Shown in pieces: positions 1 through 9,287 of a stretch of 64,000 bases of DNA. This stretch comes from an uncultured delta proteobacterium. Its GTDB lineage: Bacteria > Desulfobacterota > Desulfovibrionia > Desulfovibrionales > Desulfovibrionaceae. Positions within the stretch are counted from its first letter, which is position 1; the number at the start of each line of letters is the position of its first letter. Position numbers and translations under genes: made by a program. Where the stretch lies: contig LT599018.1 in the NCBI GenBank assembly GCA_900079685.1, positions 2,411,625 to 2,475,624 of the forward strand, written 5' to 3'. Under the pieces are notes generated by a model. It searched no databases. It had not been told where the DNA came from and saw only the letters and a list, made by a program, of their open reading frames with translations.

Positions 1-60
1 AGGTTGGAAGTTTTGAGAGCGAAAGAAAAGGACTTGCGACAAAAAAAACGCAACCCCTTG

Positions 61-115
61 ATTTTTATGGTGGGCGGTGAGGGGCTCGAACCTGTGACTC
101 TCGGCTTACAAGGCA
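61..115 (-). repeat. Displaced 3' end of tRNA-Val (putative att site)
   Basis: Bases 61-92 are identical to 9205-9236, which cover the 3' end (including the encoded CCA) and flank of the intact tRNA-Val. Similarity continues with mismatches through the T-arm and the 3' side of the anticodon stem to about 115, then stops. The anticodon-loop copy reads CTTGTAA instead of CTTACAA. The 5' half of a tRNA is missing, so this is a fragment, not a functional tRNA. The placement, downstream of the tRNA 3' end with about 9 kb between, is what site-specific integration into a tRNA gene leaves behind. Confidence 0.75.
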
Positions 116-368: not shown

Positions 369-2420
369 CTACCACGGTATGGCATATGGTCCGTGTGCTT
401 CTGCAACCGCTTTCGGACGACACCTGAAATGTTCGGCGTTAATCCGATACTTTTCCATTTTCCGGTACAAGGTCCGTAAACTGACGCCGATGCAGCGGGC
501 TGTGGCCGTCATGTTGCCGTTGCATTTTTCCAGGCCTGCCAGGATGACCTGCTTTTCGCTGTCCTGGACCGTCAACTCCGGATCGGAAACGGCCTGCGGC
601 GCTTCCTGCGGAGGAACGACAAATCCGCTGGCCGCAATGAAAGGCGGAAGATGCTCAGGTTCTATGACCAGGGAATCGGTTATATTGACCGCCCGTTCAA
701 TAACGTTCTCAAGCTCGCGAATATTGCCCGGCCAGTGGTAAGCGAGAAGAAATTCCGCCGCCCGGGGGCTGATGCCGTATTCCCTGCCTTTGCGACCGTA
801 TTTGCGGAGAAAAAAGCAGGCCAGCGCCAGTAAATCTTCCTTTCGTTCCCTGAGCGGCGGCAAAGATATGGTGAAGACGTTGAGACGGTAATATAAATCC
901 TCACGGAACGTCTTGTCGCATATCGCATCCTGGAGTTTTTTGTTCGTGGCCGCGATGATCCGGACATTGACCGTTTTGGGAAATTTCGCCCCGATGCGAT
1001 GAACCTGCTTGGTTTCCAGCACGCGCAGCAGAGTAACCTGCACATCCAGCGGCATATCTCCGATTTCATCAAGAAAGATAGTCCCGCCGTCAGCCAGTTC
1101 AAACTTGCCGACCTGACCCTCCCGGCTGGCTCCGGTAAATGCCCCTTTCTCGTAGCCGAAAAGTTCGCTTTCAATGAGCCCTTTCGGCAGGGCGCCGCAG
1201 TTAATGGCCACAAAAGGGCCGGCGCTGTAGTCACTCGCCGCGTGGATGGATTGGGCGATCAATTCTTTCCCTGTTCCGCTCTCTCCGAGAATGAGCACGT
1301 TGCCCCCGCTCCGGGCGATGCGCCGCGCGTCTTTGACCATATCCCGGGTTTTGGCGCAGTCCCCCACAATGTCGTCAAAGGTAAACGTCGCCCGGTAACC
1401 GCTCATCTTGTTGGTCAGCCGCGTAACGGCCTGGGGTTCTTCCAGGTGGACCACGGTGGAGATATGCTTGCCCGCCCCGTCATTGATGAGGCTGGTGGAA
1501 AGCAGCAGCCGGACGGGTTCCGTGGAGTTTTTAAAAATGACGTTGACCGGAAAGTGTTCCAGCGGTTCATCCAAAATCTTTTTGGTGGCATGGCGCGGGT
1601 CATCCGGAAACAACATCAGCATGTACACGTTCTGCCCGAGGACTTCCTGCCCCGGCAGCCCCATCAGTCGCAGGGCCTTGGAGTTCACCTGGATGACGTT
1701 GTTGGAGTTGTCCAAAAGGAGGATGCTGGCGGACAGGGCTTCGATAATATGGTTGCGCTGCCTGCTGGTATGGGAAAGCTCCTGGAAGGTTTGGAGCCTT
1801 TTCAGCTCTTTTGATATCCCGTCGGCGGCGGCCATGACCATGCCCAGCGTCTGCCGGTTGAGGATGTCATACTCGTGGCCTGAAATATTCAGGCAGCCGA
1901 GAAACGTATTGTCATAATCGAAAACAGGGGCCGCGCAGCAGGAAAAATCCTTGTGCGGCAGAACGTAATGTTCCTGACCATACACAATGGCCGCCGTTTG
2001 CTCCGCGCAGCACACGGCAAAGGCGTTCGTGCCGGCGTATTGTTCGCTGCGGTTGCAGCCAGGGATGGGGAGGGTGATGTTGGATTTGCGCTGGATCTCG
2101 TCATCGCCGATGGTCTTGAGCAGAAAACCATCCTTGTCCAGATAGTGAATGCTCAGCGTGGTCCCCTTGATGACGGAATACAGCGTCTCCATGTAGGGAA
2201 CCACGATCTCCATCAGGTCGCTGTTGGCTGCCACCCGCGCCTGCAAACCGGCCTCGTCCAGCAGCCAGAGCCTGGTTTCCTGCGGCTCGACCCCGGCATC
2301 CCGGGAGCGTAGCCACGAGGCGTAGATGCTGGGGCGGATGAAGCTGTAATCGTGGTCTTCGTGCCGGATGAACTTCCGCCAGGCAACGGAAAGTTTCTCC
2401 GCGTATTCCTTGGTATACAT
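369..2420 (-). CDS. Sigma-54-dependent AcoR-like transcriptional activator
   Basis: A 683-residue enhancer-binding protein that should activate sigma-54 RNA polymerase by ATP hydrolysis. The N-terminal part (about 40-200) has the AcoR-type entry [16 protein letters not shown] and a GAF-like sensor; a PAS-like segment follows (about 225-330). The AAA+ domain shows Walker A GESGTGKE (about 377), the sigma-54-contacting GAFTGA loop (about 424) and [10 protein letters not shown] Fis-type HTH closes the protein (about 620-665). An upstream ATG at 2474 would add 18 residues, but ATG 2420 has a textbook AAGGAGG six bases away and was chosen. It follows the dehydrogenase genes and is the obvious regulator of the dctP promoter, though the ligand is unknown. 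Confidence 0.9.
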
Positions 2421-2480
2421 GGGAGGCCTCCTTGGTACGCCCAGAGACACGTCCGTAGCATGTTTTTCTGCCATAAAAAA

Positions 2481-2589: not shown

Positions 2590-3279
2590 TTAAAAGAATT
2601 TTCCAGGGTTCTCAAGAATATCGGCGAGGGTTTTCAGCATCCTGTTCGCGGGCACCCCTGTGGTGGCCGTGTGGTTGATGTTGATCATGACATAACTCAT
2701 CGGTTTGACGACTATCCTATCATCTTCGACCACAACGGGCCTTTTCTTTACCCTGCCGAAACCGTAGATGGCCGTTTCAAAATTGTTGACCAGCGACGTG
2801 AAGAAATCAACATCCAGCATGGCCATGTTGCTGACGGTGAACGTTCCGCCCTTGAAGTCGTCAAGGGTCAGCTTGCCCGCGCGTGTCCGCTCGAGCAGCT
2901 CGCCGACGCCCTCGTTGACGGCATCCAGAGACTTGTCCTGCACATCGCGCAGCACCACGACATACAGCCCCTTGGGGGTGTCCACGGCTATGCCGGCGTT
3001 GCAGTTTTTGTACTGGACGAGTTCCTCGCCTTCCAACCTGGAATTCATTTCCGGGTGCTCGCGCATGGCCATCGCCACCGCCTTCACGTAAACTGCGGTG
3101 GATGACAGCTTCAGGCCTCTGCCCTTGTATTCTTCCCGAAGTTCGCCAATGGCCGTCATGTCGACTTCCAGGGCTTGCATGGCCTGCCCGAAGCCGAGAG
3201 CGCCCTCGAGCAGCTTTTCCCCGGCGAACTTGGCCGCGCCCCGCAACTTCGTCCGTTTGGCTATTTCCAGTTCCATCAT
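2590..3279 (-). CDS. Dihydrolipoamide acyltransferase (E2) catalytic core, no lipoyl domain
   Basis: This 229-residue protein matches only the acyltransferase domain of 2-oxoacid/acetoin dehydrogenase E2. It has the GIAVDTPKGLYVVVLRD stretch, the GGTFTVSNMAM segment with the conserved serine, and the C-terminal active-site region. Ordinary E2 proteins are about 370-550 residues with an N-terminal lipoyl domain and a peripheral-subunit-binding domain; both are missing here, and a lipoyl domain is encoded separately at 5354-5581. The usual DHRxxDG active-site motif reads NHTATTG: the histidine is kept but the aspartate is threonine. ATG codons at 3279 and 3276 follow GAGG. It sits 11 bases after E1-beta and is last in the operon. 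E2 family membership is clear; activity and substrate are uncertain. Confidence 0.85.
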   Translation of the reverse strand: MMELEIAKRTKLRGAAKFAGEKLLEGALGFGQAMQALEVDMTAIGELREEYKGRGLKLSSTAVYVKAVAMAMREHPEMNSRLEGEELVQYKNCNAGIAVDTPKGLYVVVLRDVQDKSLDAVNEGVGELLERTRAGKLTLDDFKGGTFTVSNMAMLDVDFFTSLVNNFETAIYGFGRVKKRPVVVEDDRIVVKPMSYVMININHTATTGVPANRMLKTLADILENPGKFF

Positions 3280-3290
3280 ATACCTCGCCG

Positions 3291-4277
3291 TTACAGCAGG
3301 GACTTAACCCCGTTAATGACGTCTTCCATCTTGGGCACCATGAGATGTTCCGCAACGCCCGACGGGATGGGCGAGTTGAGGGAACCGATCCGCCTGATGG
3401 GCTTTTTCAGGGAATCAAAGCCCTTCTCCGCCGCGATGGCCGCGATTTCCCCGCCGCAGCCGCCCCTGACGGGCGCTTCGTGCACGATCAGGAGCCGCCC
3501 GGTCTTGGCGATGGACCTGAGAAGCGCTTCCTCGTCAAAGGGAATCAGGACCCGCGGGTCGATGATTTCCACGGAGATGCCTTCGGCCGCAAGGGTTTCA
3601 GCCGCCTTTTCCACAATGGGCACCATGCTCTGGATGGCGACCACCGTGATATCTTTCCCTTCCCGGCGGACCCTGGCCGCCCTGGCCAGGGGGATGGGTT
3701 CCTGCACGTCGGGAACCGGGCATTTCACCCCTAGAGAGCCCTCGTGATACAGGAAGAGAACGGCATCGTTATCCCGGATGGCCGATCGCATCAGGCCGAG
3801 GGCGTCGTCCGCGTAATACGGCGCGACGATTTTCAGCCCCGGCACGTTGGAAAACCAGCTTTCGGAACACTGCGAATGCGTGGAACCCGAACCGACGGAA
3901 CCGTACGTTCCCCGGCCTCCGTTGGCCATGACGAACGTTACCGGCACGGAAAGGCGCCCGAGGGAATTGAAACGGAACTTGGCGGCGTTGCTGACAATGG
4001 CGTCACCCGCCACAAAGCCGAAGTCCGAAAACATCAGATCCACGATAGGCCGCAGCCCGGCAAGGGCGGCGCCGTTGGCAAAATGGGAAAAACCCGATTC
4101 GCAGATGGGCATGTCGAGGCAACGGCCGGGAAAGGCCTCCGGAACGCCCAGAAAGATGCTGAGCCCCCCGCCCTTGTTGATGATGTCTTCGCCCAGCAGA
4201 ATAATAGTGTCATCCCGCTCCATTTCCAGGCGCACGGCTTCCGCTATGGCCCGGTTCAAAAAAAGAGAACGGCTCAT
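3291..4277 (-). CDS. TPP-dependent dehydrogenase E1 component, beta subunit (AcoB-like)
   Basis: A 328-residue protein of the transketolase-like E1-beta family (pyruvate, branched-chain 2-oxoacid or acetoin dehydrogenase). The N-terminus (RAIAEAVRLEMERDDTIILLGED) and the ICESGFSHFANGAALAG region are characteristic, and the C-terminal half carries the swivel-domain segment IDPRVLIPFDEEALL. It pairs with the alpha subunit to bind thiamine diphosphate. GGGAGG precedes the start, and its ATG overlaps the alpha-subunit stop (ATGA), so the two are translationally coupled. Sequence alone does not separate acetoin from 2-oxoacid specificity; AcoB is favoured only because an AcoR-like regulator is nearby. 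Confidence 0.9.
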   Translation of the reverse strand: MSRSLFLNRAIAEAVRLEMERDDTIILLGEDIINKGGGLSIFLGVPEAFPGRCLDMPICESGFSHFANGAALAGLRPIVDLMFSDFGFVAGDAIVSNAAKFRFNSLGRLSVPVTFVMANGGRGTYGSVGSGSTHSQCSESWFSNVPGLKIVAPYYADDALGLMRSAIRDNDAVLFLYHEGSLGVKCPVPDVQEPIPLARAARVRREGKDITVVAIQSMVPIVEKAAETLAAEGISVEIIDPRVLIPFDEEALLRSIAKTGRLLIVHEAPVRGGCGGEIAAIAAEKGFDSLKKPIRRIGSLNSPIPSGVAEHLMVPKMEDVINGVKSLL

Positions 4278-5275
4278 ATGGGACCTCCCGTTTCAGGCGT
4301 GGCGTAGATATTTTCCATGGTGAAAATATCCTCGAAACTCGCGGCGGGCGATTCCTTGGTCCGCTCTACCATGCCCTCGTATTCGGCGGCGATTTGCGCC
4401 TTCAGCGCATCCATGGCCGTCTGGTCCGTGACGTTGTTTTCGATCAGATACGTTTCAAAACGTTTCAGGCAGTCCCTGGTTTCCGAATACTCTTTCACCT
4501 TGTCCAGGTCCTGGCGGAACTTGCCTCCCTGGCCTATGAAATGGTCCGTCAGGCGCAGGGTTTTGTATTCAATGACGTTGGGCAGGCCCTTCCGGGCGAG
4601 CTCCAGGGCTTTTTCCATGGCCTTGCGGACCGCCAGCACGTCGTTGCCGTCCGCGATCTGGGTGGACAAGCCATAGGGGATGGCCCGCTCGGAAATGTTG
4701 GGGTTTGTCGTCTGGCGCTCCAGAGGAACGGTCATGGCCCATTCGTTATTGATGATGACAAAAACGATGGGAACCTTGAAGAGGGAGGCCAGGTTGTAGG
4801 CCTCGCTCGTGGGGCCTTCGCTGGCGGCGCCGTCCCCGTAAGTGGCGACAACAACCTCGTCTCCGCGTTTCATATGCTTGAGGGCAAAGGCAAAGCCCGT
4901 GGCCGTGGGTGCCTGCCCGCCCAGAACGGCGGAATTGGGAATGATCCGGACATCCCCGCTGACATCCGCCATATGGTAATCATAGGCCACGCCCTTGAAG
5001 AGGCCGTCCCGTTTGCCGAACACTTCCGCCATGAACCCGTAAGGGTCCATCCGCATGATAATCCCGGCCTGCGACCGGTGGTTGGGGACATACCAGTCCG
5101 TTTTTTTCATGGCACAGAGCATGCCCACATCCACGGCCTCCTGGCCGTAAGCACTGTGGAACGAAGTCCGGATAAGGCCTTCGTTCACGGCCTGGTTCAT
5201 CCGGGCCACAAAGATGCGCCCGCGCGCCAGATGCTCGTACATCGCCAGCAACTCGTCTTTCGCATATGCAGTCAT
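4274..5275 (-). CDS. TPP-dependent dehydrogenase E1 component, alpha subunit (AcoA-like)
   Basis: A 333-residue E1-alpha. The thiamine-diphosphate motif runs from GDGAASEG to IINNEWAM, and the substrate-channel region SAYGQEAVDVG is near the N-terminus. Length agrees with AcoA/PdhA. The start has AGGAGA nine bases upstream. E1-alpha and E1-beta form a heterotetramer that decarboxylates or cleaves the substrate and passes the acyl group to lipoamide. The gene is between the free lipoyl-domain gene and E1-beta in one leftward operon. No E3 (dihydrolipoamide dehydrogenase) is encoded in the window, so that component must be shared from elsewhere. Confidence 0.9.
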   Translation of the reverse strand: MTAYAKDELLAMYEHLARGRIFVARMNQAVNEGLIRTSFHSAYGQEAVDVGMLCAMKKTDWYVPNHRSQAGIIMRMDPYGFMAEVFGKRDGLFKGVAYDYHMADVSGDVRIIPNSAVLGGQAPTATGFAFALKHMKRGDEVVVATYGDGAASEGPTSEAYNLASLFKVPIVFVIINNEWAMTVPLERQTTNPNISERAIPYGLSTQIADGNDVLAVRKAMEKALELARKGLPNVIEYKTLRLTDHFIGQGGKFRQDLDKVKEYSETRDCLKRFETYLIENNVTDQTAMDALKAQIAAEYEGMVERTKESPAASFEDIFTMENIYATPETGGPI

Positions 5276-5353
5276 TGCGCTTCTCCTGGTTGCATTGAAA
5301 CGCGCTCCCTGAAAATACGGGAAGAACTTCCCGCGTGTCCGTTCCGGCGAAAC

Positions 5354-5581
5354 CTATTCAACGATTTCACCTATTACAACACCGCATTCGGCGCTTTCTC
5401 CTTCGGGAACAATAATTTTCAGCGTTCCCGTGGCAATGGCCTCGATCTCGTTTTCCAGTTTTTCCGTCTGGATGACGTACAGGATCTCGCCCTTTTCCAC
5501 CGGGTCGCCGTCTTTTTTCTTCCACTCAACAATGGTCCCTTCGGTCATGGTCATCCCGATCTGGGGCATGACTATTTGCAT
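5354..5581 (-). CDS. Free-standing biotin/lipoyl-attachment domain protein
   Basis: A 75-residue protein that is a single lipoyl domain: it opens MQIVMPQIGMTMTEG, has the GDPVEKGEILYVIQTEK turn with the predicted lipoylated lysine in TEKLEN, and ends GVVIGEIVE. The start is fixed by AGGAGA eight bases upstream; the longer open frame to 5914 is not supported. It should act as a mobile acyl carrier between E1 and the lipoyl-less E2 of the same operon, splitting what is normally one polypeptide. A role as a carrier for another enzyme cannot be excluded. Confidence 0.88.
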   Translation of the reverse strand: MQIVMPQIGMTMTEGTIVEWKKKDGDPVEKGEILYVIQTEKLENEIEAIATGTLKIIVPEGESAECGVVIGEIVE

Positions 5582-5745: not shown

Positions 5746-7029
5746 CTACAACAGGCTCGGCAGGAACAGGGTCAGCGGCGGGACGTAGGTGATCAAAAAC
5801 AGCACGAAAATCAGCACGGCCAGAGTCGGGAGCAGCCATTTGAACATCTGCTCGATGGGGCAGTTGCCGATCCGCGTCGCGATGAAGAGGTTGACCCCCA
5901 CCGGCGGCGTGCACAGCCCGATGGTCAGGTTGACCGTCATGATCAACCCGAAGTGCAGGGGGTCGATACCCATGGCCTCGACGCTGGGCAAAAGAACCGG
6001 CGCGAGCAGGATGATGGCGGCATACGTTTCCATGAACATGCCGACCACCAGCAGGAACAGATTGATGATTAGCAGCAGGACATACTTATTGCTGGCCATT
6101 TCCACAAAAAATTCGGCCAGTTGCTCGGGGATCTGCTCCACTGTCAGCAGCCTGCCGAGCGCCGTGGCGCAGGCGACCAGCAACATGATGGTGCCGCTGG
6201 TCAGGGTGGTCTTTTTGAAAATCCGGGGAATTTCCCGAACCGTGTATTCCTTGTAGACGACCACCCCCACGAACATGGCGAACACGCAGGCAACCACAGC
6301 GGCTTCCGTGGGCGTGAATATGCCCCCGTAGATGCCGCCCAGGATGATGCCCGGAATCGTCAGGGACCAGAAGGCTTCCCTGGTCGCCTTGCCAAGAGGT
6401 ATGCGCGCTTTTTCGGCTTCTTCCGGAGAAATGCCGTACCCGTTTTTCTTGGCAAAATAGCGGACCAGGAGCACAAGACCGAGCGTGATCATGATCCCCG
6501 GGATAACGCCGCCAATAAACAGCTTTGTGATGGAAACACCGCAGCAAACGCCATACAGAATCATGGCAACGCTCGGCGGGATGATCGGCCCCAGCGCCCC
6601 GGCGGTCGCAGCCAAAGCGCAGGCGAACCCCTTGTCATACTTTTCCTTGAGCATTTCCGGGATCGTTATGCTGCCGATGCAGGCGACGGTCGCCGTCCCC
6701 GAGCCCGCGACAGCCGCGAATATCATGCTGGAAACGACGGTGACCGCACCGATGGCGCCCGTCATCGTGCCGACAAGGGCGCGGCAGAAGGTGATCAGCC
6801 GGGTGGAAATGCCGCCCTGCATCATCAGCTCACCGGCCAGGATGAAAAAGGGGATGGCGATCAGCGGGAAGGAGTCCAGGGATGTGAAATAGGTGTTCAT
6901 GATCATGGCCATGGGCACCGGCTCGAAAATGAGGCAGTAGGAAACGCTCGCCACACCGATGGCGATCATGATCGGCACGTTGAAAAAGAGAAACGCGAGG
7001 AAGATGATTATGAGCGAAAGACCTGTCAT
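5746..7029 (-). CDS. dctM: TRAP transporter large permease subunit
   Basis: A 427-residue DctM-family protein (usual length about 425-430) with many hydrophobic segments. Conserved stretches include PFFILAGELMMQGG near the N-terminus, AVAGSGTATVACIGSI, GALGPIIPPSVAMILYG, IFTPTEAAVVA and LTIGLCTPPVGVNLF. It is the ion-coupled translocation subunit of a tripartite ATP-independent periplasmic transporter, working with DctQ and the periplasmic DctP. GAGGAGG precedes the start, and the ATG overlaps the dctQ stop codon. Its position directly ahead of the lipoyl-domain and E1/E2 genes suggests that it imports their substrate. Confidence 0.93.
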   Translation of the reverse strand: MTGLSLIIIFLAFLFFNVPIMIAIGVASVSYCLIFEPVPMAMIMNTYFTSLDSFPLIAIPFFILAGELMMQGGISTRLITFCRALVGTMTGAIGAVTVVSSMIFAAVAGSGTATVACIGSITIPEMLKEKYDKGFACALAATAGALGPIIPPSVAMILYGVCCGVSITKLFIGGVIPGIMITLGLVLLVRYFAKKNGYGISPEEAEKARIPLGKATREAFWSLTIPGIILGGIYGGIFTPTEAAVVACVFAMFVGVVVYKEYTVREIPRIFKKTTLTSGTIMLLVACATALGRLLTVEQIPEQLAEFFVEMASNKYVLLLIINLFLLVVGMFMETYAAIILLAPVLLPSVEAMGIDPLHFGLIMTVNLTIGLCTPPVGVNLFIATRIGNCPIEQMFKWLLPTLAVLIFVLFLITYVPPLTLFLPSLL

Positions 7030-7553
7030 TTACTTGCCTCCTCCGCGCCGGCGGCTTCCAGGGGGTCGTCCAGCAGTTCGGGGTTCCGCAGCAGACGTAT
7101 TTCCAGCTGGATCAGCCGGATGGCCATGATGCAGTGGCTGAAAGGCACGATGAAGCAGAAAAGGGCCATGGGCAGTTTCAGCCCCAGGGTTATGGCGCCG
7201 CTTTTCATCAGGCCCCAGAGCCAGACGGAGCTGTAATAGGCGACGACAACGGCATAGACGAAAAAAATGACGTTACTGAACAGCTTCACGCCCCTGTGCA
7301 TCGACTTGGGCCAAACCTTGATGAACATGTCTATTTTGATGTGGACGTTGTGGACAATTGCATAACAGGCCGACAGGTAGCCGAACCAGACCAGCGCATA
7401 CCGCGACATCTCGTCGCACCATGCGTTGGTGACGCCGAACCCGTACCTGCCCACGACTTGATAAAAGAGGATGACAAGCATGAACATCAGGATAACGACG
7501 CAGACCGTGCTCTCTATTTCGTCATACCACTTGAGTTTTTTCTCCATGCTCAC
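7026..7553 (-). CDS. dctQ: TRAP transporter small permease subunit
   Basis: A DctQ-family membrane protein with about four hydrophobic segments, including VVILMFMLVILFYQVVGRYG and the typical WCDEMSRYALVWFGYLSA motif. The open frame reaches an ATG at 7601, but no ribosome-binding site lies there. A GTG at 7553 has GGCGG seven bases upstream, giving 175 residues, and was preferred; ATG 7547 is the next option. DctQ bridges DctM and the binding protein. A perfect hairpin separates the gene from dctP. Confidence 0.85.
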   Translation of the reverse strand: MSMEKKLKWYDEIESTVCVVILMFMLVILFYQVVGRYGFGVTNAWCDEMSRYALVWFGYLSACYAIVHNVHIKIDMFIKVWPKSMHRGVKLFSNVIFFVYAVVVAYYSSVWLWGLMKSGAITLGLKLPMALFCFIVPFSHCIMAIRLIQLEIRLLRNPELLDDPLEAAGAEEASK

Positions 7554-7608
7554 AGACGCACCGCCTTCTTTTGGTGTTGCCGTGCCCCGGAAGCCCGGCA
7601 TGGTCCGG

Positions 7609-7656: not shown

Positions 7657-8691
7657 CTACTGCAACAAAGTTTTATAGTCCTTGCCCAGGAGCGCGATCA
7701 CGCTATCCAGAACGCCCTTGCCCGGCCTGTCATAGTTCTTTTCCCACATGCTCTTCACAGCGGCCTTGAAGGGAGCCAGTTCCGCTTCCGTGTACTGGCG
7801 CACCTTCACGTTGTCTTTCGTCTCCAGGCTGACCATGACCTCGGCATTGAGTTTCTTCTCAATCTCGCGGCCCTGGCGGACAAAGTCCTTCATGCATTCG
7901 TCGAAAATCGCGCGAAGGTCGGCGGGAAGGCTGTCAACCCACTGCTTGTTCACCGTCGGAAGATGGAAGTGCGCCGTAGCGCGGATAATGGCCAGGTGGT
8001 CGATGACTTCGCAGAACTTGTCGGTCTTGTACAAGGTGGTCGCGGTCAGCATGCCGTCAACCGTGCCCTGCTGCTGGGCGGTATACAGTTCACCGTAAGC
8101 GACAACCGTGGGGCTGGCGCCGAGCGCGCTGACAAGGCCCATCTGCATGTCCGTGGCCATGGTGCGGATCTTGAGCCCTTTGAGGTCGGCGGGGGTGTTG
8201 ATGGGGCCCTTCTTGGTGCCGATGGAGAGCCAGCCCTTCACGAAACCGTCGTACACGACGACGCCGGCGTCACGTTCCAGCACTTTTGACCATTCCTTGG
8301 CAAGGTCGGAGTCGAGGACCTTGTATATTTCCTCCCAGTCAGTGAACAGGTAAGGAAATTCAAAAATGCTGTACTGAGGAATATTCGCCATGGCGGACAA
8401 AGTATGCGTGGGAATCGGCACCAACTGCACCGTGCCCTGACGCACGATCTCCCCAAGCTCGGTGTCGGATTGGGCCATGGATTTGCCCATGTACACCATG
8501 GCTTTGATCCGCCCGCCGGATTTTTCCTCCAGAATTTTTTTCAAATACTGCAGAGCCGTTTCACCCGCGTCACCTTTGGTGCCGATGTGGGCCATCTTGA
8601 ACTGGAATGTTTGCGCGGTCATGCCGGGAACCGCAAGGGCCAACACGATAAACAGACTAAGCGTCAACGTGAAAAAGTGTTTACAATGCAT
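7657..8691 (-). CDS. dctP: TRAP transporter periplasmic solute-binding protein
   Basis: A 344-residue DctP-family protein. ATG 8691 is supported by GAGGAG and by the signal peptide it starts (hydrophobic core LTLSLFIVLALAV, cleavage after MTAQ or nearby); the longer frame to 8775 is rejected. The mature protein shows LKGLKIRTM, containing the conserved arginine that binds substrate carboxylates in this family, and VDGMLTATT. The ligand is therefore probably an organic acid, but it cannot be named. It is first in the operon behind a sigma-54 promoter. Confidence 0.92.
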   Translation of the reverse strand: MHCKHFFTLTLSLFIVLALAVPGMTAQTFQFKMAHIGTKGDAGETALQYLKKILEEKSGGRIKAMVYMGKSMAQSDTELGEIVRQGTVQLVPIPTHTLSAMANIPQYSIFEFPYLFTDWEEIYKVLDSDLAKEWSKVLERDAGVVVYDGFVKGWLSIGTKKGPINTPADLKGLKIRTMATDMQMGLVSALGASPTVVAYGELYTAQQQGTVDGMLTATTLYKTDKFCEVIDHLAIIRATAHFHLPTVNKQWVDSLPADLRAIFDECMKDFVRQGREIEKKLNAEVMVSLETKDNVKVRQYTEAELAPFKAAVKSMWEKNYDRPGKGVLDSVIALLGKDYKTLLQ

Positions 8692-8784
8692 GTTCCACTC
8701 CTCGTGATAGGGGGTTTTCGCGCACACTGCGCAACGATGGTCTGTGTCGCCTTTTTTACGACCTGTGATGTCCAATGCCGGGAT

Positions 8785-8825: not shown

Positions 8826-8880
8826 TGCCATTTTGGCAGCATCAATTAAAAACATGCCAAAATGGCATGCCAAAACGACA
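8826..8880. promoter_or_regulatory. Palindromic upstream activator sites (TGCCA-N3-TGGCA)
   Basis: Two perfect copies of TGCCA-N3-TGGCA occur at 8826-8838 and 8855-8867, with a weaker third (TGCCA-N3-CGACA) at 8868-8880 and another half-site at 8881-8885. They lie about 25-85 bases upstream of the sigma-54 promoter, where enhancer-binding proteins dock. The likely ligand is the Fis-type HTH of the regulator at 369-2420. Confidence 0.6.
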
Positions 8881-9162: not shown

Positions 9163-9203
9163 GAAACAAAAAGTGGTTATATGCGCTATACATATAACCA
9201 CTT
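9163..9203 (-). terminator. Terminator of the tRNA-Val gene
   Basis: Thirteen-base perfect arms (AAGTGGTTATATG at 9171-9183 and its complement at 9191-9203) are followed on the minus strand by TTTTTGTTT. The hairpin begins nine bases past the tRNA 3' end. Confidence 0.85.
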
Positions 9204-9211
9204 AATTTTTA

Positions 9212-9287
9212 TGGTGGGCGGTGAGGGGCTCGAACCCCCGACCCTCGGCTTGTAAGGCCGATGCTCTACCAACTGAGCTAACCGCCC
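9212..9287 (-). tRNA. tRNA-Val (anticodon TAC)
   Basis: A 76-base gene with an encoded CCA. It folds as a standard cloverleaf: acceptor GGGCGGT pairing with ACCGCCC, D-arm AGCTCAGTTGGTAGAGC, anticodon stem CGGC/GCCG around loop CTTACAA (anticodon at 9252-9254 on the plus strand), and T-loop GTTCGAGCC. It reads GTA and, by wobble, other valine codons. Its 3' part is duplicated at 61-115, so the locus appears to have been an integration target. Another hairpin (9294-9327) lies upstream in its leader. Confidence 0.97.

What the first reader, a model, noticed from the sequence alone, without database searches (positions are those of the whole stretch)
2590..5581. Split E2: stand-alone lipoyl domain plus core-only acyltransferase
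2-oxoacid and acetoin dehydrogenases carry lipoyl and catalytic domains on one E2 chain with a subunit-binding domain. Here a 75-residue lipoyl protein and a 229-residue catalytic core are separate genes at opposite ends of the E1 genes, with no binding domain and no E3. Acyl transfer must use a diffusible carrier, as in glycine cleavage.
Basis: partly seen in the sequence, partly recalled or inferred. Interest (0 to 1): 0.7.

Follow-up and report, generated by a model that had tools for sequence, protein, structure and literature searches.

The report
Split-E2 dehydrogenase operon on tRNA island
In one bacterium, an enzyme complex that normally keeps its swinging arm and its transfer domain on one protein has them as two separate small proteins, in a transporter-linked operon that looks horizontally acquired; similar splits turn up in unrelated bacteria, so it looks like a real but little-noticed variant rather than a wholly new machine.

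Summary
A 75-aa lipoyl domain (5354-5581) and a 229-aa E2 catalytic core (2590-3279) flank E1-alpha/E1-beta on the minus strand, with no binding domain and no E3 in the operon. The unit is larger: TRAP transporter DctPQM, lipoyl protein, E1-alpha, E1-beta, E2 core, sigma-54 activator. It lies between tRNA-Val and an imperfect copy of its 3' end, 9.1 kb apart.

The genome also has four full-length E2s, two with a neighbouring E3, so E3 can come from elsewhere. In 297 genomes of the class, only this one and two matches near contig ends have a short lipoyl frame. Comparable E1/lipoyl-only/core-only sets occur in one other genome of the phylum and on four proteobacterial plasmids.

Best reading: a new variant of a known kind with a separate lipoyl carrier. 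Free diffusion of that carrier is plausible, not shown; the substrate is unknown.

The parts
52..114 (-). Imperfect copy of the 3' end of tRNA-Val, left border of the island
   Evidence: 63-nt direct repeat, 87% identical to 9196-9258
369..2474 (-). AcoR/DhaR-like sigma-54 activator, 701 aa
   Evidence: PF00158 4.7e-68, PF02954 1.9e-13; best NCBIfam is DhaR, under its cut-off
2590..3279 (-). E2 catalytic core alone, 229 aa, motif NHTATTG
   Evidence: PF00198 9.3e-56 over 5-230 of 232, no lipoyl or binding domain; motif tally; E2 fold
3291..4277 (-). E1-beta, 328 aa
   Evidence: PF02779 2e-26, PF02780 1.9e-32
4274..5275 (-). E1-alpha, 333 aa
   Evidence: PF00676 5.3e-56
5354..5581 (-). Stand-alone lipoyl domain, 75 aa, candidate lipoyl lysine K41 (TEK)
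   Evidence: PF00364 2.4e-16; K41 invariant in the alignments
5746..7029 (-). TRAP transporter large permease DctM, 427 aa
   Evidence: PF06808 2.5e-119
7026..7601 (-). TRAP transporter small permease DctQ, 191 aa
   Evidence: PF04290 8.3e-25
7657..8691 (-). TRAP solute-binding protein DctP, 344 aa from the ATG I favour (a longer TTG frame starts at 8775)
   Evidence: PF03480 1.9e-56; GAGGAG upstream of the ATG
8826..8880 (.). Candidate operator: 13-bp repeats TGCCATTTTGGCA / TGCCAAAATGGCA and a third, weaker copy
   Evidence: Perfect 13-nt inverted repeat 8826-8838/8855-8867; 8868-8880 is 85% complementary; function not tested
9196..9258 (-). Right border repeat: 3' 47 nt of tRNA-Val plus 16 nt beyond
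9212..9287 (-). tRNA-Val (anticodon tac)
   Evidence: ARAGORN

Best explanation
A 2-oxoacid/acetoin-dehydrogenase-type pathway with a split E2. The TRAP transporter imports a small organic anion. E1-alpha/beta cleaves it, or a product made from it, with thiamine diphosphate and acylates the stand-alone lipoyl protein. The lipoyl protein carries the acyl group to the core-only E2, which most likely passes it to CoA. The reduced carrier is re-oxidised by an E3 encoded at another locus (C1:1001437 or C1:1601905). No binding domain tethers E3, so the carrier must reach E3 as a separate protein, much as the H protein of glycine cleavage does. Shown here: gene content, domain boundaries, lack of a binding domain, other E2 and E3 genes in the genome, similar sets in other taxa, island-like borders. 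Inferred: lipoylation, acyl flow, CoA as acceptor, which E3 is used, import of the E1 substrate by this transporter. Unknown: the substrate.
For: Lipoyl domain, E1-alpha, E1-beta and E2 core are adjacent, co-directional and closely spaced. E1 keeps 12 of 14 (alpha) and 20 of 24 (beta) near-invariant columns. E2 core covers nearly the whole catalytic domain and keeps His203 and Ser150; its model matches solved E2 cores (1c4t_A TM 0.84 by query length). Lipoyl lysine conserved and a lipoate-protein ligase is present. Two strong E3 matches lie in other E1-E2 operons. Similar lipoyl-only plus core-only sets: one genome of the phylum and four plasmids. An E2 domain served in trans is documented for OdhA (PMC10415282, passages).
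Against: The E2 motif has lost both R and D of HRxxDG; T at the D position is seen in this one of 89 rows, and the core deviates at 3 of 9 near-invariant columns, tied with one other row for the most among 30. E1-beta deviates at 4 of 24, including E176Y. Four full-length E2s could serve this E1 instead. No close relative was found, so purifying selection cannot be tested.
Confidence: 0.5

Rival explanations
1. The parts are split at gene level but assemble non-covalently: the lipoyl protein docks stably on E1 or on the E2 core, so acyl transfer stays within a complex and nothing diffuses between E1 and E2.
For: All four genes are in one run of genes, which favours co-assembly. The E2 core begins where other E2 cores begin, so it could form the usual trimer (inference).
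Against: No binding domain and no extra docking segment is visible in the lipoyl protein or the E2 core. E3 would still have to be reached without its usual binding domain.
Confidence: 0.2
2. The E2 core is not a normal acyltransferase. It has a changed acceptor or is a scaffold, and the acyl group on the lipoyl protein is used by another enzyme, for example one of the four full-length E2s.
For: HTATTG in place of HRxxDG; T at the D position in 1 of 89 rows and T at the R position in 1 of 89, both the window. Longest end branch of 30 rows in the E2 tree (2.11). Of the split cores whose motif I read, G442 also lacks D/N (DHRVFAG). Four full-length E2s are available.
Against: Histidine and serine are kept. 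Asn is tolerated at the D position: 4 of 89 rows, and Asn614 is the residue named for Azotobacter E2p in the titles of 1dpb-1dpd. R is M in 23 of 89 rows, so its loss alone is ordinary. One full-length E2 (L084) has Y at the D position, so change there is not special to split cores.
Confidence: 0.2
3. The operon is a decaying or non-functional passenger on an island, and the altered E2 reflects drift.
For: Long end branches for all three enzyme chains; border repeats diverged to 87%; no integrase seen among the island's genes.
Against: The eight genes of the run are open, overlapping or closely spaced, with full-length domain matches; E1 columns are largely conserved. Long branches may simply reflect an unsampled donor.
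Confidence: 0.1

Closest known systems
Acetoin dehydrogenase / 2-oxoacid dehydrogenase complexes with E1-alpha/beta
   Same: E1-alpha, E1-beta, lipoyl domain and E2 catalytic core are all present; AcoR-like activator beside them, as in ordinary operons of the window's family (L124-L128, L130) and as described for acetoin clusters (PMC3543383, passages).
   Different: Lipoyl domain and core are separate genes, no binding domain, no E3 in the operon; E2 motif HTATTG.
OdhA/KGD two-in-one 2-oxoglutarate dehydrogenase of Actinobacteria (PMC10415282, passages)
   Same: An E2 catalytic domain that takes its lipoyl group in trans.
   Different: OdhA fuses E2 to E1 and borrows the lipoyl domain of the full-length E2p; here E2 is a separate protein and the operon has its own lipoyl protein.
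GcvH of glycine cleavage, LbpA of sulfur oxidation (PMC6067878, passages), LarG of Pelobacter (proposed; PMC3543383, passages)
   Same: Small separate protein that carries the lipoyl group (the general role of GcvH is recalled).
   Different: The window protein matches PF00364, the E2-type lipoyl domain, and no other lipoyl family at E<=1; it sits beside E1 and an E2 core.
Unnamed split sets: Shinella WSC3-e, Diaphorobacter HDW4B, Paraburkholderia PGU19 and P. sprentiae plasmids; G442 of the same phylum
   Same: E1-alpha, E1-beta, lipoyl-only gene and core-only-length E2.
   Different: Those whose motif I read have DHRVING, DHRALDG or DHRVFAG, not HTATTG; none of the shown regions has a TRAP transporter (the PLSDB gene tables are incomplete); E2 cores only 28-33% identical to the window's where compared.

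Membership tests
Canonical 2-oxoacid/acetoin dehydrogenase complex | E1-alpha and E1-beta with their cofactor-binding domains | tested here: met
   PF00676, PF02779, PF02780; 12 of 14 and 20 of 24 near-invariant columns kept
Canonical 2-oxoacid/acetoin dehydrogenase complex | E2 with lipoyl domain, binding domain and core on one chain | tested here: not met
   Two separate genes, no PF02817 in either; the four other E2s of the genome meet it
Canonical 2-oxoacid/acetoin dehydrogenase complex | Active-site motif HRxxDG in E2 | tested here: not met
   HTATTG; histidine kept, D/N position is T
Canonical 2-oxoacid/acetoin dehydrogenase complex | E3 in the operon or genome | tested here: inconclusive
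   None in the operon; two strong PF02852 matches beside other E1-E2 genes; which E3 serves this E1 is unknown
Canonical 2-oxoacid/acetoin dehydrogenase complex | Lipoyl group attached to the lysine (K41 here) | not testable with these tools
   Lysine conserved, lipoate-protein ligase present; the modification itself needs an experiment
E2 (CAT-like) acyltransferase fold | Catalytic-domain fold of E2 | tested here: met
   PF00198 9.3e-56; Foldseek to 3mae_C 1.6e-23 and 1c4t_A TM 0.84 by query length, from a model of mean pLDDT 70
E2 (CAT-like) acyltransferase fold | Acyl transfer to CoA | not testable with these tools
   Needs purified protein
Glycine cleavage H protein | Member of the H-protein family | tested here: not met
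   Only PF00364 and PF13533 among lipoyl-type families at E<=1; no H-protein family
OdhA-type enzyme | E2 and E1 fused in one chain | tested here: not met
   Separate genes with their own starts
Freely diffusing lipoyl carrier system | Carrier not bound in a stable complex | not testable with these tools
   Complex prediction and biochemistry not available here

The most novel reading that the evidence does not exclude
An island-borne operon encodes a dehydrogenase in which the acyl group on a free lipoyl protein is not handed to CoA by the usual E2 chemistry: the core-only E2, with HTATTG, uses a changed active site, another acceptor, or serves only as a scaffold, and the carrier links this E1 to the cell's other complexes.
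Probability: 0.15. Interest if true: 0.75.

Novelty: new variant of a known kind. Interest (0 to 1): 0.5.

Why it matters
These complexes are textbook examples of tethered swinging arms. A natural set in which the arm is a separate 75-residue protein, with similar sets in other bacterial groups, lets one ask directly how much tethering matters: same E1, arm and core, with and without a linker. The plasmid annotations record the pieces (biotin/lipoyl-containing protein, lipoyl domain-containing protein, 2-oxo acid dehydrogenase subunit E2) without naming a system. The altered core motif gives a clean test of which active-site residues an E2 needs.

Tried and rejected
Wrong strand: I aligned L002-L004 on the wrong strand; one search replaces it and one search is not used.

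Close relatives: the genome-contig scan with the E2 core gave 3 loci at 31-36%; the viral-contig scan with E1-beta gave none; plasmid tblastn gave no match of 60% identity or more for the E2 core, E1-beta, E1-alpha or the lipoyl protein. The only other genome of the genus held (74% complete) has no E2 match above 33%. No metagenome scan was allowed.

Isethionate as substrate: considered because DctP is nearest to the isethionate-binding protein (120 bits). By my reading of the alignment against the residues named in PMC11668362 (passages), Arg177 is kept but Arg156 reads Leu and Asn217 reads Thr, so that site is not conserved. Substrate left open.

Sigma-54 promoter: the consensus scan found 23 matches in the window against 35 expected by chance, so no promoter is claimed.

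Hidden binding domain upstream of the lipoyl gene: tested on the longer open frames, none at E<=1. The second small carrier of the genome is of biotin type.

Structure: the E2 model comes from 4 sequences, mean pLDDT 70, with 1-13, 16-20, 22-29 and 152-167 under 50; used for the fold only, not for active-site geometry.

Papers: searches listed no paper that I recognised as describing a split lipoyl/core E2. The library holds open-licence PubMed Central papers only, and apart from the four papers of which I read passages I saw listings only.

Full report
WHAT IS THERE. On the minus strand the window holds one run of genes: DctP, DctQ, DctM, a 75-aa lipoyl protein, E1-alpha, E1-beta, a 229-aa E2 core and a 701-aa sigma-54 activator. 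Spacings are 55, -4, 164, 78, -4, 11 and 115 nt, counting DctP from the ATG at 8691. The lipoyl protein matches PF00364 over 2-73 of 73 positions, the E2 core PF00198 over 5-230 of 232.

IS THE SPLIT REAL. There is no room for a binding domain before the E2 core (11 nt), and the longer frames of both genes show none at E<=1. In the whole genome the 6 PF02817 matches all lie in the four full-length E2 genes, which serve as positive control. Both short genes have ribosome-binding-like sequences before their ATG. The 164 nt before the lipoyl gene stay open in frame, so a longer N-terminus without known domains cannot be ruled out.

THE REST OF THE GENOME. It has four further E2 genes, each with lipoyl, binding and core domains, one with two lipoyl domains. 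Two strong E3 matches (135 and 123 bits; three further PF02852 matches score 46-62) sit beside two of them. Of the four loci, two show DctP, DctQ and DctM, a third shows DctQ and DctM, and two show an AcoR-like activator within the stretches I took. The window operon is thus the split member of a set of five E1-E2 loci, and E3 can come from elsewhere. One lipoate-protein ligase was found.

THE ACTIVE SITE. In 89 distinct E2 cores of at least 150 aa taken from loci I held (102 aligned stretches; shorter and identical ones dropped), the position before the final G of the motif is D in 81, N in 4, and T, Y, A or a gap in one each; the T is the window. The residue after the histidine is R in 62, M in 23, and T, Q, G or a gap in one each; the T is again the window. 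The set is not random: it comes from my own searches and is rich in the window's taxonomic family, whose ordinary E2s read NHMxTDG. His203 and Ser150 are kept. Asn614 is the residue named for Azotobacter E2p in the titles of 1dpb-1dpd, so loss of Asp is not by itself loss of function. Other split cores whose motif I read have DHRVING (Diaphorobacter), DHRALDG (Shinella) and DHRVFAG (G442). E1 keeps 12 of 14 (alpha) and 20 of 24 (beta) near-invariant columns; the E2 core keeps 6 of 9, its 3 departures tying with one other row for the most among 30 rows.

HOW RARE. In 297 genomes of the class, 49 have an E2 match at 1e-30, the window's genome included; the best other identity is 40%, and every other listed open frame is at least 409 aa except one at a contig edge. 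In 395 genomes of the phylum, 8 match at 1e-35, the window's included; best other identity 41%. With a lipoyl profile built from the window protein and six plasmid lipoyl proteins, 54 of 297 class genomes match at 1e-13 in 81 places; three have a frame under 400 aa: the window, and G235:C69 and G266:C326, both within 630 bases of a contig start and not fetched. In the phylum 147 of 395 genomes match at 1e-12, but the list of places was cut, so the short ones seen are a lower bound. Besides the window, five listed places there have frames under 250 aa: G399, G442, G450, G532 and G669. I fetched three. G442 holds a complete split set: E1-alpha, E1-beta, an 81-aa lipoyl protein and a 249-aa core. 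In G399 and G532 the lipoyl frame runs into the contig end and tells nothing. G450 and G669 were not fetched.

ELSEWHERE. I opened 24 plasmid regions chosen from hits, so these counts are not frequencies; PLSDB gene tables are incomplete, so a gene not listed may exist. Thirteen have a stand-alone lipoyl gene; in twelve it lies beside E1 genes, while Azospirillum B510 lists only the lipoyl and E2 genes, with transposases upstream. One of the thirteen (Novosphingobium) has no annotation and was read from open frames. Five have an E2 of core-only length (225-275 aa): Shinella WSC3-e, where it lies two genes downstream of the lipoyl gene, Diaphorobacter HDW4B, Paraburkholderia PGU19, P. sprentiae and Azospirillum B510. 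Of these I tested two (Shinella, Diaphorobacter), plus G442, for a binding domain; none has one. Four others have the lipoyl gene next to a separate alpha/beta hydrolase gene, which is only a fragment in P. phymatum. Thermus has it next to a TRAP transporter with no E2 listed; Rubrobacter and Streptomyces NBC_00564 also list no E2 in the region. The other 11 regions have no stand-alone lipoyl gene that I saw.

ORIGIN OF THE SPLIT. In the E2 tree of 30 rows the Diaphorobacter, Paraburkholderia and Azospirillum cores group with a full-length E2 of Aminobacter (100/100); Diaphorobacter's core is 53-56% identical to several AceF proteins. They lie across a branch of 84/89 from the window, G442 and Shinella cores. 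The window has the longest end branch there (2.11) and is among the longest in the E1 trees, so its place is unsure. At least two origins of the split are likely; a shared origin for the others is neither shown nor excluded.

ISLAND. tRNA-Val lies at 9212-9287. A 63-nt direct repeat (9196-9258 and 52-114, 87% identical) covers the 3' 47 nt of the tRNA and 16 nt beyond. Between the copies lie this operon and about 250 nt more at the left end: 9.1 kb, GC 0.570 against 0.612 to the right. I saw no integrase among its genes. To the left are a Bro-N protein and a transposase with integrase core. A tRNA gene and a copy of its 3' end are the usual borders of an integrated element (general knowledge); this fits the absence of close relatives in the class. 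The empty site was not looked for, and the donor is unknown.

MECHANISM. Known chemistry of the families (recalled): E1 with thiamine diphosphate acylates a lipoyl group, E2 transfers the acyl group to CoA, E3 re-oxidises the lipoyl group. Here the lipoyl group would sit on a separate protein and E3 would come from another locus. That an E2 domain can work on a lipoyl group in trans is documented for OdhA (PMC10415282, passages). Small separate lipoyl carriers are documented as LbpA (PMC6067878, passages) and proposed as LarG (PMC3543383, passages). Free diffusion, the CoA step and the substrate remain inference. DctP is closest to an isethionate-binding protein but by my reading lacks two of three of its named anion-binding residues.

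VERDICT. Observation confirmed, interpretation partly supported, new variant of a known kind. My ten answered paper searches (listed in Tried and rejected) showed no description of such a split set, within an open-licence library only.

Noticed in passing
window 52-114 and 9196-9287: The operon sits between tRNA-Val and an 87% copy of the tRNA's 3' end (63-nt direct repeat), the usual borders of an integrated element; no integrase seen inside.
   Followed up: partly
window 8826-8880: Three 13-bp TGCCA-type repeats, two of them perfect inverted copies, upstream of DctP: candidate binding sites for the sigma-54 activator.
   Followed up: partly
L132, L133, L134, L135 (same genome): Four further E1-E2 loci, three with TRAP transporter genes: an expanded set of such operons. 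E1 and E2 of L132 are sister to those of the gut clostridium Vescimonas fastidiosa in the trees.
   Followed up: partly
L070, L068, L073: Thermus, Rubrobacter and Streptomyces plasmids with E1-alpha, E1-beta and a stand-alone lipoyl gene but no E2 listed in the region.
   Followed up: no
L072, L074, L075, L078: Lipoyl gene next to a separate alpha/beta hydrolase gene: looks like a split form of the lipoyl-hydrolase AcoC (the fused form is recalled and fits the NCBIfam hit PRK14875); hydrolase only a fragment in L078.
   Followed up: no
L137 9428-14203: A 1591-aa repetitive open frame, adhesin-like by eye, left of the island, near a transposase and a Bro-N protein.
   Followed up: no
L084 (G442): A full-length E2 with Y at the conserved D position (motif DHRVIYG), in the same genome as the split set of L113.
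   Followed up: no
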